Assembly (NCBI GenBank): GCA_019116265.1
Contig: DXBZ01000063.1
Span: 1 to 32,290, forward strand
Reading direction: 5' to 3'
Length of the DNA: 32,290 nucleotides
DNA from: Candidatus Olsenella stercoravium
GTDB lineage: Bacteria; Actinomycetota; Coriobacteriia; Coriobacteriales; Atopobiaceae
In this document: positions 20,439-30,990 of the stretch, piece by piece
Layout: each line of letters starts with the position of its first letter
Numbering within the stretch: position 1 is the first letter of the stretch
Made by a program: the position numbers and the translations under genes
The notes under the pieces: model-generated
The model's input: the letters and a program-made list of their open reading frames with translations, nothing else
The model's database searches: none
What the model was told of the DNA's origin: nothing

Positions 20439-21827
20439 ATGCCCGTCACCCTGCGCGTCGCGCTCGGCAACGTCTCGCGCTGCGCACGCGACTACTCGGT
20501 CTACCTTGTCACGCTCGCCTTTGCCACGTGCCTGCTCTACGCGTTCAACGCCTCGGGCGACTACCTCCTGGCGATGCCGCTCACGGACCCGCAGCTTGAG
20601 GTCATCCACAAGGCGCGTGACATCACAGGAGCCTTCTCGGTCTTCGTGGTGCTGGTATTCGCCGTGCTCGTGGCCTACGCCACGCGCTTCATCGTACGGC
20701 GGCGCTCGCGGGAGTTTGGGACGTACGCACTGCTCGGCATGCGCGCGCCCGCACTCGCGGCGATTCTCGCGGCGGAGGGCGCGCTCGTGGGGCTCGCGGC
20801 GCTGGCGGCGGGGCTCGCGCTCGGCGTCGTGGCGTCGCCGGCCTTCGGTGCGATCGCGGCGTTCGTCTTTGGCGTGCCGTGGCAGCTTGCCTGGTCCTTC
20901 TCGCCCGCGGCGGCGCTCGACGCGTGCGCGTGGTTTGCTGGGATCGAGGGGCTGGCGATCGCGCTCTCCGTGGTTGACGTGCTGCGCCGGCCGCTCGTGG
21001 AGCTTCTCGAGCGGGACCGTGCGCCGGAGCAGCTCGCCTTCGCAACGCATCGTGGCGTGACGCGTGCGCAGGCGGTGCTGGCCGTGGTCCTTCTCGCTAT
21101 GGTGTGGGGCTCGTGCGTGGTGCAACCCGGGCTCTTCGTGCTTGCGATTCTGCCGATGGGGTGGGCGGCCTACGTGGCCACCTCGCTCGTCTTTCGCCTG
21201 GTGGCGACGGGCGTGCCCGACCACGTGCGTCGCGGCTCCCGCTACTGGGAGGGGCTGCGCGCCTTCACGCTGCGGCAGGTGGAGGGCCACGTGTCCACGG
21301 GGTGCCAGGCGCTCTCGTGCACCTGCGTGCTCGTGGCGTGCGCGGTCTGCATGATCTGCGCGGGGCTCCTGTTCTCGGTGGGGCAGCGTGCGGCCGGACT
21401 CGCGGACCCGGGAGCGCTGGCGGAGGCGTCGCTCGCACCGATCGGCTACGTGGGGATCTTCTACGGGGAGGCGTTTCTCGTGGCCGCCGCTGCGGTGCTC
21501 GCGCTGCAGCAGGTGAGCCAGGCGGCCGACGGCAGGCGCGCCTATGCCACGCTCATGGCGCTTGGGACGGACGCGCGGGAGGCGCGCGGCGCCGTGCGGG
21601 CACAGGTGGGCGTCGCCTTCGTGCTGCCCGCGGCGCTCGCGGTGGTGCACGACGGCTTCGGTCTCATGCTGGTGCGTCAGCTCGCAGGTGGCGTGCCTGA
21701 CGAGGTGTTTCTCGCCATCGCGGTGTGCTCGGTCGTGGGCACGCTCGGGCTTCTTGCCCTGTACTACCTGCTTTGCGTTCGCGAGTGCTCGCGCGTGCTG
21801 CTGGGTGGGGCGTCGAGTCTTGGTTGA
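20439..21827 (+). CDS. FtsX/BceB-like ABC transporter permease without an adjacent same-strand ATPase
   Basis: MPVTLRVALGNVSRCARDYSVYLVTLAFATCLLYAFN; RRRSREFGTYALLGMRAPALA; multiple TM segments. Confidence 0.8.
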   Translation: MPVTLRVALGNVSRCARDYSVYLVTLAFATCLLYAFNASGDYLLAMPLTDPQLEVIHKARDITGAFSVFVVLVFAVLVAYATRFIVRRRSREFGTYALLGMRAPALAAILAAEGALVGLAALAAGLALGVVASPAFGAIAAFVFGVPWQLAWSFSPAAALDACAWFAGIEGLAIALSVVDVLRRPLVELLERDRAPEQLAFATHRGVTRAQAVLAVVLLAMVWGSCVVQPGLFVLAILPMGWAAYVATSLVFRLVATGVPDHVRRGSRYWEGLRAFTLRQVEGHVSTGCQALSCTCVLVACAVCMICAGLLFSVGQRAAGLADPGALAEASLAPIGYVGIFYGEAFLVAAAAVLALQQVSQAADGRRAYATLMALGTDAREARGAVRAQVGVAFVLPAALAVVHDGFGLMLVRQLAGGVPDEVFLAIAVCSVVGTLGLLALYYLLCVRECSRVLLGGASSLG

Positions 21828-21850: not shown

Positions 21851-23350
21851 CTATGTCATATCTATCGCCAGCGTGCGCTCGCCGCGAAGAACTTGTCGCT
21901 CGCCCAGACGATAGGCGAGCAGTACCAGCATCCAGCAGATGGCGGCGAACACGGCAACGTGCACGATCGGCATGTTAGCAAGAAATGCTTCCCAGGTTAC
22001 AGGGCTCGCCTCTACCGCGAACACGGTAATGAGGAGGTTGAGCGCTGCCGCCCATGCGAGGGGTCTCGCCACGATGAGGGTGGCCTCTCTGGTGAACATC
22101 CTTCTCACCTGCCTGTGGGTAATGCCCGCCGAGAGCAGCTGGGAGACTTCGCGCCGGCGTTCGGGAATCCTGCCAAGCACGCTCGAGAAAACGTCTGAGA
22201 TTCCTATACAGGCAAGCACACCAGCAAAGACGTCAACAAAGAGCCTGAGGCCTGCTCGCGAGTCCTCGTCGCGCTTGGCCTCCTCGGTGAGACTTAGCAC
22301 TTCTATGTTTTTGTTGCCGGAGAAGCGATTCTCCAGCGCATGAGCTATCTCAGTCTCCGCTGTCGGCGACGTAACGAGGATGTTATAGAAGAGGTCACCG
22401 CTTTCGGCTTTGTGCTCGTCTCCCAACGTGACCGACGACACGCCGTCCATGGCGAGAAGATCGTTGATGAGCGAGTCGTCCGCGCCTGCGGCGGCGCCGT
22501 CGTCAACGGTTATGCGGACATCCCATACTCCGTCGTAGCGCTCGAAGTAGGTAACTTGGGTCGATAGGTGCGATAAAGTCTCGAAGTTGATAAGCGTCAC
22601 GAAGGCGAGAATCGCAAGGGCAATTGAGGCGTTGGCGGTGCGCATGGTGCGCCTTCGCGAGCGCAGGGACTGTGCTGCGAGCGACGTCTCGATTCTCAGC
22701 CGTGTGGCGAGCGCCCGAAAAATAGGGCCCGGGCGTCGTTTGGTAGCATAGTCGTCGTCACCCTCGGACATCGCCTTGATCACGCTGATTTTTCCAAGTC
22801 GGCGTGCGGGCAGGAGCGCTGAGAGCGCTACTGTGGCAGTCGCAACGAGAAGGCCGAGAAGGACTGCGAACGGCGAGAGGCCAACCACGGGCTCATAGGT
22901 GCGCGCGTTTGCAGTTAGCGCAAGCACTCCCGTAACGAGCACGAGCGCAAGCCCCATGCCCACGAGGACGCCAAGGCAGGCCGCGGGAAGCGAGAGCACA
23001 CATCCCTCTGCAAGGAGTAGGCGCCTGATCTGCGCGTCGTTTGCTCCGATTGACTTCAGAATGCCAAGCTGACGAATGCGAGCACTCATGGAAACGCCAA
23101 AGGCGCTCTTGAGCATGAGAACGAGCGCCAACGCGCTTGTCGCCGTCACTACGCCAAAGGCGATGGTCGAGCCTGTGACGCTCGGCGTCTCGCCGAGGTA
23201 GGCCATGCGCGCGAGGTAGTCGGTAACGAGCATATGGGCAACGCCGACCACGAGCCCGAGCAGGGCGGATGCGACGAAGGAGATTGCGGCGAGCGAAGTG
23301 ACCGAGGCACGGTTGTGACGGACGTAGCTCGTAAGATAGTCGCGAAGCAT
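21851..23350 (-). CDS. FtsX-like (MacB-type) ABC transporter permease
   Basis: 499 aa, multiple TM; IRQLGILKSIGANDAQIRRLLLAEG, LLPARRLGKISVIKAMSEGD. Confidence 0.88.
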   Translation of the reverse strand: MLRDYLTSYVRHNRASVTSLAAISFVASALLGLVVGVAHMLVTDYLARMAYLGETPSVTGSTIAFGVVTATSALALVLMLKSAFGVSMSARIRQLGILKSIGANDAQIRRLLLAEGCVLSLPAACLGVLVGMGLALVLVTGVLALTANARTYEPVVGLSPFAVLLGLLVATATVALSALLPARRLGKISVIKAMSEGDDDYATKRRPGPIFRALATRLRIETSLAAQSLRSRRRTMRTANASIALAILAFVTLINFETLSHLSTQVTYFERYDGVWDVRITVDDGAAAGADDSLINDLLAMDGVSSVTLGDEHKAESGDLFYNILVTSPTAETEIAHALENRFSGNKNIEVLSLTEEAKRDEDSRAGLRLFVDVFAGVLACIGISDVFSSVLGRIPERRREVSQLLSAGITHRQVRRMFTREATLIVARPLAWAAALNLLITVFAVEASPVTWEAFLANMPIVHVAVFAAICWMLVLLAYRLGERQVLRGERTLAIDMT

Positions 23351-23352
23351 AG

Positions 23353-24240
23353 CTACTCCTTTCCGTCGACGACACGTCCGTCGGAGATGCGTACGACGCG
23401 GTCAGCCGCAGCTGCCACGCTCTCGTCGTGGGTGACGAGGACGATGGTGGTACCAAAGCGTTCCCGCACCTTTCCTAGGAGGCCCACGACCTTCTCGCCG
23501 TTTTCTCGGTCGAGGCTGCCTGTGGGCTCGTCGGCAAGGACGACGGCAGGACGCGAGACGAGAGCTCGCGCGATGGCCACGCGCTGCTGTTGCCCGCCGG
23601 AGAGCTCGGAGGGCATGCTCTTCTCGCAGTCCGTGATGTTGAGAAGGTCAAGGAGCTCGGCAACCGTTGCCGGGTCCGGACGAGACCCGTCGAAGCGCAC
23701 GGGAAGCTCTACGTTGTCTCGCACGGAGAGGAACGGGACGAGATTGTGGAACTGGTAGACGAGACCGACGGTGTGTCGGCGATAGAGGGCAAGAGCGTCT
23801 GCGCCAAGCGTGGAGAGATCCATGCCGTCCACGACCACGCGACCAGCGGTGGGGGCGTCCACGCCGCCAAGGATGTGCAGCAGCGTCGACTTGCCGGAGC
23901 CCGAGGCGCCCATGATGGCGACGAACTCACCCCGGCGTACGGTGAGCGTGGCACCATCGAGTGCCCTCCGCTCCGCTGCGCCCTCGCCGAAGACGCGCGT
24001 GACGTCCTCGACGATGACCGCTGGGTCGGCATGGTTGCTGCCGATGGTTAGGGGCTGCGCTCCGGTTGCGGAGGTGCCATCAAGTGACACGTCGAAGGGG
24101 ATGCGCCGCTCACGGTCGACTTTCTTTGCAAAGAGCGTGAACGCTGTGGTCATGCTCATTCCGAGGTCGCGACATATTCCCTCCATGGAGCGCTTGGTGT
24201 CCTGATCGAGCCGGAAGTTGACGAGCGTGGTCTCGGACAT
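23353..24240 (-). CDS. MacB/LolD-type ABC ATPase with N-terminal RelB/DinJ antitoxin-like ribbon-helix-helix domain
   Basis: N-term VNFRLDQDTKRSMEGICRDLGMSMTTAFTLFAKKVDRERRIPFDVSLD, then MGASGSGKSTLLHILGG, LSGGQQQRVAIARAL, LADEPTGSLD in one frame. Confidence 0.88.
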   Translation of the reverse strand: MSETTLVNFRLDQDTKRSMEGICRDLGMSMTTAFTLFAKKVDRERRIPFDVSLDGTSATGAQPLTIGSNHADPAVIVEDVTRVFGEGAAERRALDGATLTVRRGEFVAIMGASGSGKSTLLHILGGVDAPTAGRVVVDGMDLSTLGADALALYRRHTVGLVYQFHNLVPFLSVRDNVELPVRFDGSRPDPATVAELLDLLNITDCEKSMPSELSGGQQQRVAIARALVSRPAVVLADEPTGSLDRENGEKVVGLLGKVRERFGTTIVLVTHDESVAAAADRVVRISDGRVVDGKE

Positions 24241-24403
24241 GGGAGCCTCCTTAAAGATATTGTCTTTATATTATCTTACACAGAGAGAAAACAAAAGCTG
24301 GCACCTGGAGTAAATGCCAGAATGCATTTGGATTACAAAGTGGTCTAACGTGGTATAAATGGAATCAAACAATGACACTTGGACAATCGGTAGGGGAGGT
24401 CCC

Positions 24404-24694
24404 ATGGCAACGTCAATGACGTCGCTCAACACCAAGCTGAGCGTCGAGGAGAAGGACGCCTTCGTCAGGAACACCGCCGCCCTGGGCCTGACGCCGTCCG
24501 CTGCCATCAAGGTCTTCGTCCACATGTTCAACGAGTGCGGCGGCTTCCCGTTTGAGGTTCGCCGGCAGGTGAGCGACGAGGCCACAACCTACCTCTCTGC
24601 GGATGATTACGGGCGCTTTGCGAGCGCCCTCGACTCTGCCATGCCCGTGGCTACCCAAGAGCTGCTTGGTCGCGAGTTCTCATGGGAGGGCTAG
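24404..24694 (+). CDS. RelB/DinJ-like antitoxin
   Basis: MATSMTSLNTKLSVEEKDAFVRNTAALGLTPSAAIKVFVHMFNECGGFPFEVRRQ; overlaps the toxin start. Confidence 0.8.
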   Translation: MATSMTSLNTKLSVEEKDAFVRNTAALGLTPSAAIKVFVHMFNECGGFPFEVRRQVSDEATTYLSADDYGRFASALDSAMPVATQELLGREFSWEG

Positions 24695-25167
24695 CGTTTC
24701 TTCGCATTCGCCCGCTTCTCGACGATGACGACGTGAGCGAGTTCTCCTCGGGTAACGACGACAACGACGCCTGGCTCAAGGGGCGCGCGCATCGCGCGAT
24801 GCGCGACGGGACGGCTCGGGTGTACGTCCTGCCCCTCTCAACTGGTGAAATTTGCGGCTACTATGCCCTGAGCACCCATGCGGTGGCGCGGGTCGGGACG
24901 CTCGCCGGCTCGTTGCGTCGAAACGCCCCGGACCCGATTCCCTGCACGCTGCTTGGCCAGCTTGCCGTCGATGAGTGCTATCAGGGGGAGTCGGCGGGAG
25001 CCAGATTGCTGCAGGACGCCATTCGCCGCGCGGCTGCGGCGTCGCGCATCGTCGCATCGCGGGCGCTTGTCGTCGACCCGGCTGACGAGCACGCGGAGGG
25101 CTTCTACGCTCACTTTGGGTTCCAGCGCCTGGCGAGCGATTCTCGCCGCATGTTCGTGCGGCTTTAG
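24682..25167 (+). CDS. GNAT acetyltransferase, TacT-like toxin
   Basis: NDAWLKGRAHRAMRDGTARVYVLP, GYYALSTHAV, LLGQLAVDECYQGESAGARLLQDAIRRA, FYAHFGFQRL. Confidence 0.82.
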   Translation: MGGLAFLRIRPLLDDDDVSEFSSGNDDNDAWLKGRAHRAMRDGTARVYVLPLSTGEICGYYALSTHAVARVGTLAGSLRRNAPDPIPCTLLGQLAVDECYQGESAGARLLQDAIRRAAAASRIVASRALVVDPADEHAEGFYAHFGFQRLASDSRRMFVRL

Positions 25168-28426: not shown

Positions 28427-28639
28427 GAGGTTTGGGTTCAAGTTTTAGCGGTTTCTCGAGTAGGCGGTTACAGAACTCCAGCTCAGCGGGGCGGGTTGTC
28501 TGCCGGCCCTGACGGCGTGAACCCAAACCGGAAAACGGTTTGGGTTCACCACGAGCCTATAGTGCAAAAGCGCGAAGCCGTTACCTGCACGTATGTAACC
28601 TGATACTCGCGAAACCGCCGGAACGTGAACCCAAACCTC
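28427..28639. repeat. 213 bp composite inverted-repeat element with four GTTTGGGTTCA termini
   Basis: Outer GAGGTTTGGGTTCA/TGAACCCAAACCTC; inner GTGAACCCAAACCG-GAAAA-CGGTTTGGGTTCAC; no long ORF. Confidence 0.8.
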
Positions 28640-28783
28640 GAGAGGCGGTGTCTGCGCCTTGCTTTGTGCCGAGTTGGAGGCAGGCAGTTTGCCGGCGAGC
28701 AGCTGCGCAACGGGCTGTTTCTTGTGTGGCTTCGGGCGTGCGGTGACAATGGCCTTACCGAGAGACCCGAGCGAGGAGGACCC

Positions 28784-29611
28784 ATGGCCATCAAGGACGT
28801 CATCACCGCCATCCGCAAGGAGGCGGGCATTACGCAGGAAGAAATGGCGCGCAGGCTCTACGTGACGCGGCAGGCCGTCAGCCGCTGGGAGCAAGGCGAG
28901 ACGACCCCCGGGATCGACATGGTCAAGCTCATCTGCGTCACCTTCGGCGTGCCGCTCGAGCGCTTCTTTGACATGCCCATGAGCTACTACTGCCAGTGCT
29001 GCAGCATGCCCATCCCCGACGAGGAGATGCACGGCACCGAGGCCGACGGCTCCAAGAGCGTGGACTTCTGCAAGTTCTGCTACGACCACGGAGACTTCAC
29101 CGCCAAGGGCATGACGATGGACGAGTTCATCGAGGCCACGGCCCCCATGGAGGCCAAGGCGCTCGGCGTCTCCCTCGACGAGGCGGTCTCGCTCATGGCC
29201 ACGCTGCTGCCGCATCTCAAGCGCTGGCGCGAGGTCGCCGAGAACGAGGCGGCCTACGGCGAGGAGGTTCGGGCTGCCTACGGCGACGAGGTGATGGATA
29301 CTGCTAACGAGAAGTACGTGGCGATGGGGGAGGCCGCCCACCTGCAGGCCGAGGAGCTGGCGCTGGCCATCAACGAGCAGCTGCGCCGCGCTATGGAGGC
29401 GGGAGACCCGGCCGGTCCGGAGGCGCGCAAGCTCGTTGCGATGCACGGCCACTGGCTGCGCATGTACTGGCCGGATGGCCTCTACACGCCCGAGGCCCAC
29501 AAGAGCCTGGCCGATGGTTACGTCTCCGACGAGCGGTTTCGCGCGTACTACGAGAAGGTGGCCCCAGGCGCTGCGCAGTTCCTGCGCGACGCAATCCACG
29601 CGTGCGTGTGA
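28784..29611 (+). CDS. XRE HTH regulator with zinc-ribbon and TipAS-like domains
   Basis: ITQEEMARRLYVTRQAVSRWEQGETTPGIDMVKLICVTFGVPLERFF; CQCCSMPI...CKFCYDHGDF; TipAS-like MHGHWLRMYWPDGLYTPEAHKSLADGYVSDERFRAYYEKVAPGAAQFL. Confidence 0.85.
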   Translation: MAIKDVITAIRKEAGITQEEMARRLYVTRQAVSRWEQGETTPGIDMVKLICVTFGVPLERFFDMPMSYYCQCCSMPIPDEEMHGTEADGSKSVDFCKFCYDHGDFTAKGMTMDEFIEATAPMEAKALGVSLDEAVSLMATLLPHLKRWREVAENEAAYGEEVRAAYGDEVMDTANEKYVAMGEAAHLQAEELALAINEQLRRAMEAGDPAGPEARKLVAMHGHWLRMYWPDGLYTPEAHKSLADGYVSDERFRAYYEKVAPGAAQFLRDAIHACV

Positions 29612-29811: not shown

Positions 29812-30990
29812 ATGTACGAGCGAGCTTGCGTGGGCCTGTTGGCGGAGCGTCTCAGCGAGCCACGGCGCTTCATCCAGATCGTGGTCGGATCGCGACAGAC
29901 GGGCAAGAGCACCGCCGTGGGCCAGGCGCTCTCTCGTGCGGAGATCCCCTGTGTCGAGTTCGCCTTCGACCGCCCGCGGGACCGACGCGCTCGCAAGCTT
30001 GAGGAGGTCTGGGAGTCCGCCCGCGAGGTCGCCGAGGACGGGGGCGAGGTTATCCTCTCCCTTGATGAGGTGCAGAAGGTTCCCGACTGGGCCTCGACGG
30101 TGAAGTACCTCTGGGACGAGGACACAAGGTGCGGGCGCAGCGTCAAGGTCGTTCTGACGGGGTCCTCTACGCTCACCCTGAAGCGAGGCGTGTCCGAATC
30201 CCTCAAGGGGCGCTACGAGCTCATTCCCTCGACGCAGTGGACCTACGGCGAGTGCCGAGAGGCCTTTGGGTGCACGCTGGAAGAGTATCTCTACTTTGGC
30301 GGCTATCCCGGTGCGGTGCAGCTCCGCGACGACGAGCCCCGATGGAGCGCCTATGTGCGCGACGCCATAATCGAGCCCACGCTGACGCAGGACATCCTCG
30401 AGATGGAAACGGTTCGCAAGCCCGCGCTTCTCCGTGCGCTGTTTGAGGTGGGAGCCGCATATTCTGCCCAGGAGATCTCCTATCGCAAGCTCCTCGGGCA
30501 GCTCGACGACCGGGGCAACACGGATACCATCGCACACTACTTGGAGCTGCTCTCGCACGCGGGGCTTATGAGCGGCCTCAGAAAATACGACGAGAAGATC
30601 CTCAAGGAGCGCGGCAGCTCGCCGAGGCTGCTCGTGCACGACACCTCGCTCATGGTGGTCGCCTCGGGAGAGGACAGGGCGAGACTGCTTGAGGACAGCG
30701 ACCGGCGCGGCCACCTTGTAGAGACAGCGGTCGGCACCTACCTTCTTGCCCGGTCGAAAACGGAGCACTTCTCGGTCAACTGGTGGAGGGACGGGTCGGC
30801 AGAGGTTGACTTCGTGGTGACGCAGGGGAGAAAGAGAACCGCCATCGAGGTCAAGAGCGGCCGCGTCAAGAGCCTCAGGGGACTTGGCGAGTTCGTTCAG
30901 AGATATCCGGGAACTTATGCCCTCGTCATCGGCTCTGACGAGTTCCCCGTTGAGGACTTCCTTCTGGGAAGGGTCCCGCTCTTTCAGTGA
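29812..30990 (+). CDS. AAA ATPase with DUF4143 domain
   Basis: VVGSRQTGKSTAVGQALSR, VILSLDEVQKVPDW, VVLTGSSTLTLKRGVSESLKGRYE, EVDFVVTQGRKRTAIEVKSG. Confidence 0.92.
   Translation: MYERACVGLLAERLSEPRRFIQIVVGSRQTGKSTAVGQALSRAEIPCVEFAFDRPRDRRARKLEEVWESAREVAEDGGEVILSLDEVQKVPDWASTVKYLWDEDTRCGRSVKVVLTGSSTLTLKRGVSESLKGRYELIPSTQWTYGECREAFGCTLEEYLYFGGYPGAVQLRDDEPRWSAYVRDAIIEPTLTQDILEMETVRKPALLRALFEVGAAYSAQEISYRKLLGQLDDRGNTDTIAHYLELLSHAGLMSGLRKYDEKILKERGSSPRLLVHDTSLMVVASGEDRARLLEDSDRRGHLVETAVGTYLLARSKTEHFSVNWWRDGSAEVDFVVTQGRKRTAIEVKSGRVKSLRGLGEFVQRYPGTYALVIGSDEFPVEDFLLGRVPLFQ

What the first reader, a model, noticed from the sequence alone, without database searches (positions are those of the whole stretch)
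24241..25167. DinJ-like antitoxin paired with a TacT-like GNAT toxin, divergent from the DinJ-ABC transporter
Characterised TacT-type toxins are usually paired with DUF1778-type RHH antitoxins; here the partner looks RelB/DinJ-like and overlaps the toxin start by 13 nt. The divergent DinJ-ABC fusion shares the ~160 bp intergenic region, which contains CTGGCA...TGCCAG and AAGATATTGTCTT dyads. Together this suggests a toxin-antitoxin-transporter module with one shared operator.
Basis: inference. Interest (0 to 1): 0.75.

Follow-up and report, generated by a model that had tools for sequence, protein, structure and literature searches.

The report
Hybrid antitoxin beside transporter with antitoxin head
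A toxin-antitoxin pair, whose antitoxin joins a DNA-binding head of one family to the toxin-blocking tail of another, sits next to an unrelated mobile transporter cassette that has borrowed a similar DNA-binding head, and the two appear to be switched by separate DNA sites rather than one shared switch.

Summary
The proposed single toxin-antitoxin-transporter module with a shared operator is not supported.

(1) The GNAT gene is TacT-like (PDB TacT-family hits, E about 1e-26). Its antitoxin is not simply DinJ-like: a RelB/DinJ ribbon-helix-helix head (residues 1-55) is joined to a TacA/DUF1778 toxin-binding tail (39.7 bits against a best of 9.3 for 2,000 shuffled tails). Pfam finds RelB then TacA1 in two related antitoxins.

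(2) The divergent gene is a real RelB-head/ABC-ATPase fusion, found in 12 of 399 genomes of the order at 84-99% identity, in at least four genomic contexts. Only 5 lie beside this TA. Eight same-genus genomes show the empty site. Co-occurrence is no better than chance (Fisher p=0.46).

(3) The AAGATATTGTCTT dyad belongs to the transporter. Its perfect form AAAGACANTGTCTTT precedes RelB-ABC with or without the TA, and was absent from 7 tested genomes lacking the gene. The TA has its own conserved promoter box. CTGGCA/TGCCAG occurs only in four close genomes.

Best reading: two separately autoregulated units brought together by insertion. Functions are inferred, not assayed.

The parts
24404..24694 (+). 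Antitoxin gene, 96 aa, chimeric (RelB-type RHH head plus TacA/DUF1778-type tail)
   Evidence: SD GGGGAGG at 24393-24399; this start is conserved in the relatives while the ATG at 24359 is not. RelB Pfam 22.2 bits and PDB DinJ 9lew E=2.6e-4 over residues 7-62. Tail HMM 39.7 bits.
24404..24568 (+). RelB/DinJ-like ribbon-helix-helix head of the antitoxin (residues 1-55)
   Evidence: the TacA head profile gives no score above shuffles
24569..24691 (+). TacA/DUF1778-like toxin-binding tail (residues 56-96)
   Evidence: 39.7 bits against at most 9.3 for 2000 shuffled tails; Pfam TacA1 positions 41-69 matched in relatives L209 and L210, after a RelB match above cut-off
24682..25167 (+). TacT-like GNAT toxin gene, 161 aa; predicted catalytic Tyr142; QGESAG acetyl-CoA loop
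   Evidence: Pfam GNAT families above cut-off; PDB TacT-family chains E about 1e-26; motifs
24330..24359 (+). TA promoter/operator box GGATTACAAAGTGGTCTAACGTGGTATAAA
   Evidence: TGGTCT or TAGTCT followed four bases or so later by GTGGTATA is kept upstream of the TA in the 19 loci of the main group (L043 reads GTAGTAAA), including empty-site genomes; not recognisable in L210 and L232
23353..24240 (-). RelB-ABC fusion gene, 295 aa
   Evidence: Pfam RelB 35.9 bits at residues 5-52 and ABC_tran 116.5 bits at residues 94-240; single ORF in 12 genomes
24076..24240 (-). RelB RHH head of RelB-ABC (residues 1-55), without antitoxin tail
   Evidence: pN/pS 0.079 against 0.151 for the ABC part; no hit with the TacA tail profile
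24253..24267 (.). RelB-ABC operator, AAAGATATTGTCTTT here; consensus AAAGACANTGTCTTT
   Evidence: exact or 1 mismatch upstream of RelB-ABC in all 9 same-genus genomes that have it, absent in 7 that lack it, and in the 3 fusions of another family
24298..24320 (.). CTGGCA-N11-TGCCAG dyad, lineage-specific
   Evidence: present only in G000, G005, G028, G030; absent at all other TA and RelB-ABC loci read
21851..23350 (-). FtsX-type permease, second gene of the RelB-ABC cassette
   Evidence: Pfam FtsX 67.2 bits; directly follows RelB-ABC in the loci mapped

Best explanation
Two independent, separately autoregulated units stand back to back. Unit 1 is a TacAT-type type II toxin-antitoxin pair: the GNAT toxin would acetylate aminoacyl-tRNA; the antitoxin's TacA-like tail would block it, and its RelB/DinJ-like RHH head, which replaces the usual DUF1778 head, would repress the TA promoter through the box at 24330-24359. 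Unit 2 is a mobile two-gene exporter cassette (RelB-ABC ATPase plus FtsX permease). Its ATPase has captured the DNA-binding head of a RelB antitoxin, without the toxin-binding tail, together with that antitoxin's kind of operator (24253-24267), and most likely represses its own promoter. The cassette inserted between a neighbouring permease gene and the TA promoter in one lineage. Shown here: domain composition, conservation, separate promoter elements, empty sites, lack of co-occurrence. Inferred: toxicity, neutralisation, DNA binding, repression, transport.
For: Empty site: FtsX gene directly followed by the TA in G009, G010, G012, G014, G015, G023, G024, G027. RelB-ABC elsewhere with no TA beside it in G007, G013, G021, G023, G164, G212, G214. 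Fisher test within the genus: 6 both, 11 TA only, 3 RelB-ABC only, 11 neither, p=0.46. Operator AAAGACANTGTCTTT found in 9 of 9 genomes with RelB-ABC and 0 of 7 without, and in 3 further fusions of another family. It also lies upstream of the two stand-alone RelB genes whose beta-strand reads LVNFR as in the fusion (1 and 3 mismatches), and not upstream of the others examined, which read VNIR, INIR or the like. TA box conserved irrespective of the cassette. Chimeric antitoxin. Head under purifying selection.
Against: No assay was possible. The antitoxin's own RelB score is just below Pfam's cut-off (22.2 against 22.4), although close relatives score above it. The operator/beta-strand match in stand-alone RelB genes rests on two genomes of one family and was noticed after the fact. 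In four close genomes the two promoters lie within 160 bp, so read-through or steric effects between them remain possible. The AlphaFold models were weak (mean pLDDT 62 and 43) and were not used beyond noting helices at 14-26, 31-44, 66-77 and 82-88 of the antitoxin.
Confidence: 0.82

Rival explanations
1. One toxin-antitoxin-transporter module with a shared operator.
For: Divergent genes 163 bp apart, both with RelB-type heads, and the arrangement kept in five genomes.
Against: Neither unit needs the other; distinct conserved promoter elements that stay with each unit elsewhere; the CTGGCA dyad is not conserved.
Confidence: 0.06
2. Separate units that have acquired cross-regulation in the five genomes where they are adjacent, through closeness of the promoters or through RHH heads recognising each other's sites.
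For: RHH heads of the same superfamily; 163 bp between the genes; two operators about 60 bp apart.
Against: The two sites share no evident sequence; the heads differ at the DNA-contacting strand (LVNFR against SLNTKL); no joint conservation.
Confidence: 0.15
3. RelB-ABC acts as an antitoxin or sponge for a RelE/YafQ or GNAT toxin, the transporter part being secondary.
For: It carries a RelB domain above the family cut-off.
Against: Only the RHH head is present; the toxin-binding tail is missing (Pfam match 2-49 of 82; no TacA tail); seven of the twelve copies have no GNAT toxin-antitoxin pair beside them.
Confidence: 0.04

Closest known systems
TacAT / AtaRT / KacAT GNAT-RHH toxin-antitoxin systems (DUF1778 antitoxins)
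   Same: Gene order antitoxin-toxin with overlap, TacT-like GNAT with the catalytic tyrosine position, TacA-like antitoxin tail. PMC9177977 describes GNAT toxins as associated with DUF1778 antitoxins.
   Different: The DNA-binding head is RelB/DinJ-like instead of DUF1778; the acetyl-CoA loop reads QGxSxG instead of QGxGxG or similar throughout the clade.
GNAT-DUF4065 (SocA/Panacea) toxin-antitoxin systems, clade C of PMC9177977
   Same: A GNAT toxin family that changed its antitoxin type; examples occur in the same genus (L046, L047).
   Different: There the whole antitoxin is replaced; here only the head is, and the TacA tail is kept.
RelB/DinJ antitoxins of RelBE and DinJ-YafQ
   Same: RHH head with the conserved PF motif; PDB DinJ 9lew is the closest solved structure.
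   Different: No RelB-type tail and no RelE/YafQ toxin at this locus.
MacB/LolD-type ABC exporters with FtsX permeases
   Same: ATPase domain (LolD profile 210 bits, below its cut-off of 307.75) and FtsX-type permease.
   Different: The ATPase carries an N-terminal RelB RHH head with its own operator. No description of such a fusion was found in the papers searched, which cover open-licence papers only.

Membership tests
TacAT-type GNAT toxin-antitoxin system | GNAT toxin homologous to TacT/AtaT/KacT | tested here: met
   PDB TacT-family chains E 6e-26 to 1e-9 over nearly the whole length
TacAT-type GNAT toxin-antitoxin system | catalytic tyrosine in the FY..FGF motif | tested here: met
   Tyr142 in EGFYAHFGF, conserved in the clade
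TacAT-type GNAT toxin-antitoxin system | antitoxin gene directly upstream, overlapping or adjacent | tested here: met
   13-nt overlap, kept in the relatives
TacAT-type GNAT toxin-antitoxin system | antitoxin with DUF1778/TacA1 domain: DNA-binding head | tested here: not met
   no score above shuffles with the TacA head profile; RelB head instead
TacAT-type GNAT toxin-antitoxin system | antitoxin with DUF1778/TacA1 domain: toxin-binding tail | tested here: met
   39.7 bits against at most 9.3 for shuffles; TacA1 tail positions found by Pfam in L209 and L210
TacAT-type GNAT toxin-antitoxin system | toxicity by aminoacyl-tRNA acetylation, neutralised by the antitoxin | not testable with these tools
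   needs expression and tRNA assays
RelB/DinJ antitoxin family (antitoxin of the window) | RelB RHH head | tested here: inconclusive
   Pfam 22.2 bits against a cut-off of 22.4; NCBIfam TIGR02384 31.9 against 45.65; relatives L209, L210, L232 above the Pfam cut-off
RelB/DinJ antitoxin family (antitoxin of the window) | RelB-type toxin-binding tail and a RelE/YafQ-type toxin partner | tested here: not met
   the tail is TacA-like and the partner is a GNAT
LolD/MacB ABC exporter (RelB-ABC) | ABC ATPase with Walker A, signature and Walker B motifs | tested here: met
   GxSGSGKST, LSGGQQQR and LADEP in all 12; ABC_tran 116.5 bits
LolD/MacB ABC exporter (RelB-ABC) | equivalog-level membership of LolD or MacB | tested here: not met
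   scores below all curated cut-offs shown
Single shared-operator TA-transporter module | the parts co-occur and share one conserved operator | tested here: not met

The most novel reading that the evidence does not exclude
RelB-type RHH heads act as exchangeable DNA-binding cassettes that can move with their operators: one has replaced the head of a TacA-type antitoxin, another has been fused to an exporter ATPase, giving a transporter whose ATPase is its own transcriptional repressor and may couple transport state (ATP or permease binding) to transcription.
Probability: 0.5. Interest if true: 0.65.

Novelty: new variant of a known kind. Interest (0 to 1): 0.5.

Why it matters
It gives a natural head-swap in a type II antitoxin, where a foreign DNA-binding head is joined to a conserved toxin-binding tail, so head and tail function can be tested separately. 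Searches that require a DUF1778 domain next to a GNAT, as in PMC9177977, would miss or misname such pairs as RelB/DinJ. The RelB-ABC fusion, with its matching operator, makes a compact test of whether an exporter ATPase can be its own repressor. It is also a caution: adjacency of two RelB-like genes here reflects an insertion, not one system.

Tried and rejected
The genome-contig scan with the whole RelB-ABC protein was swamped by ordinary ABC ATPases, so the first 120 residues were used in whole genomes instead. Viral contigs gave no relatives of the GNAT or of the RelB head. A weak plasmid match in Psychrobacter has no GNAT gene annotated next to it. Stand-alone RelB genes with other beta-strands do not carry the operator. 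The start at 24359 was rejected: no Shine-Dalgarno, inside the -10, not conserved. AlphaFold models had low confidence and no fold search was run. A Pfam call with an out-of-frame tail failed and was repeated. A census in other classes could not be centred on a named locus.

Full report
Observation. The reading frames, the 13-nt overlap and both dyads are as stated. The antitoxin most likely starts at ATG 24404, behind a GGGGAGG ribosome-binding site; the upstream ATG at 24359 lies in the -10 region and is not kept in relatives. The divergent gene is a true fusion: RelB Pfam domain 35.9 bits at residues 5-52 and an ABC ATPase at 94-240.

The toxin. The GNAT matches TacT-family chains of the PDB at E about 1e-26 along nearly its whole length and keeps the catalytic tyrosine position (Tyr142). 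The members of its clade carry QGxSxG in the acetyl-CoA loop where other GNAT toxins of the order carry QGxGxG or similar.

The antitoxin is a chimera. GNAT homologues were found in 63 of 399 genomes of the order and the upstream antitoxins were extracted. Most are TacA1/DUF1778 proteins of about 90 residues ending in a tail like TTRLSxxxFDxFxxALDxPMPxAAxxLLxxxxxWE; two are DUF4065 proteins. The window's antitoxin ends in TTYLSADDYGRFASALDSAMPVATQELLGREFSWEG. A profile of the TacA tails gives it 39.7 bits; the best of 2000 shuffled tails gets 9.3; all 21 RelB-headed sequences score 35 to 56 bits. A profile of TacA heads gives none of them a score above shuffles. The head instead matches RelB/DinJ: PDB DinJ 9lew E=2.6e-4 over residues 7-62, Pfam RelB 22.2 bits against a cut-off of 22.4. 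In the relatives L209 and L210 Pfam finds RelB above its cut-off (27.6 and 30.5 bits) followed by the TacA1 tail positions (the TacA1 parts are below that family's own cut-off), which is independent support. In the GNAT tree 19 RelB-headed loci form one clade (support 100/99); L232 is a long-branched possible second case. A phylum-wide sample of 397 genomes gave full-length matches only in the window's own genus.

The transporter is a separate, mobile unit. RelB-ABC fusions occur in 12 of 399 genomes of the order: 9 of 31 in the genus and 3 in another family, with 84-99% identity to the window's protein, which suggests horizontal transfer. The permease follows directly in the loci mapped. Five of the twelve lie beside this TA; the rest lie in other contexts. 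In eight same-genus genomes the neighbouring FtsX gene runs directly into the TA promoter with no cassette. Within the genus, co-occurrence is 6 both, 11 TA only, 3 RelB-ABC only, 11 neither (Fisher p=0.46). The RHH head is more constrained than the ABC part (pN/pS 0.079 against 0.151), so it is not a relic. It stops at about residue 55 and has no toxin-binding tail.

Two operators, not one. Upstream of RelB-ABC, immediately before the ribosome-binding site, every fusion carries AAAGACANTGTCTTT or a one-mismatch form, the window's AAAGATATTGTCTTT among them. In 16 genomes tested, allowing one mismatch, it was found at this place in all 9 with RelB-ABC (with one further one-mismatch site in G030) and nowhere in the 7 without. 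Two stand-alone RelB genes whose DNA-contacting strand reads LVNFR, as in the fusion, carry a similar site (1 and 3 mismatches); the others examined, with other strands, do not. This is a post-hoc observation on few, related genomes. The TA promoter has a different box, GATTAC...GTGGTCTAACGTGGTATAAA, kept with small changes with or without the cassette and in another family. The CTGGCA/TGCCAG dyad is found only in four close genomes.

How it most likely works. Inferred from family knowledge and the anatomy: the GNAT acetylates aminoacyl-tRNA; the TacA-like tail neutralises it; the RelB-like head represses the TA promoter. RelB-ABC represses its own promoter through its head and, with the permease, exports an unidentified substrate. 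PMC9177977 documents that GNAT toxins are mainly paired with DUF1778 antitoxins and that one clade changed to DUF4065; PMC2701414 had linked RHH proteins with GNAT genes earlier. I found no paper describing a RelB-headed TacA-tailed antitoxin or a RelB-ABC fusion, but the library holds open-licence papers only.

Noticed in passing
L149 1988-2469 (genome G010): The GNAT toxin gene is interrupted (stop/frame change near residue 102) while the antitoxin reads through, as expected of a decaying toxin-antitoxin pair.
   Followed up: no
L221 4001-5160 (Collinsella aerofaciens NZ_OY725717.1): A 73-residue RelB/DinJ-family protein overlaps a CAAX endopeptidase gene, with no toxin gene annotated next to it: another RelB head apparently used as a regulator outside a toxin-antitoxin pair.
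   Followed up: no
L232 984-1262: A RelB-headed antitoxin (Pfam RelB 37.5 bits) with a TacA-like tail beside a GNAT outside the main clade; possibly a second, independent head swap.
   Followed up: partly
window 24982-24999 and the clade of L028-L042, L207-L210: The acetyl-CoA loop reads QGxSxG in the RelB-headed clade instead of QGxGxG or similar.
   Followed up: no
window 20439-21827: The 3' end of the neighbouring FtsX-type gene differs between genomes with and without the cassette, consistent with an insertion just downstream.
   Followed up: partly
window 28625-29611 and 29812-30990: A protein with HTH, zinc-ribbon and TipAS antibiotic-recognition domains, and an AAA_14/DUF4143 ATPase, lie downstream.
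   Followed up: no
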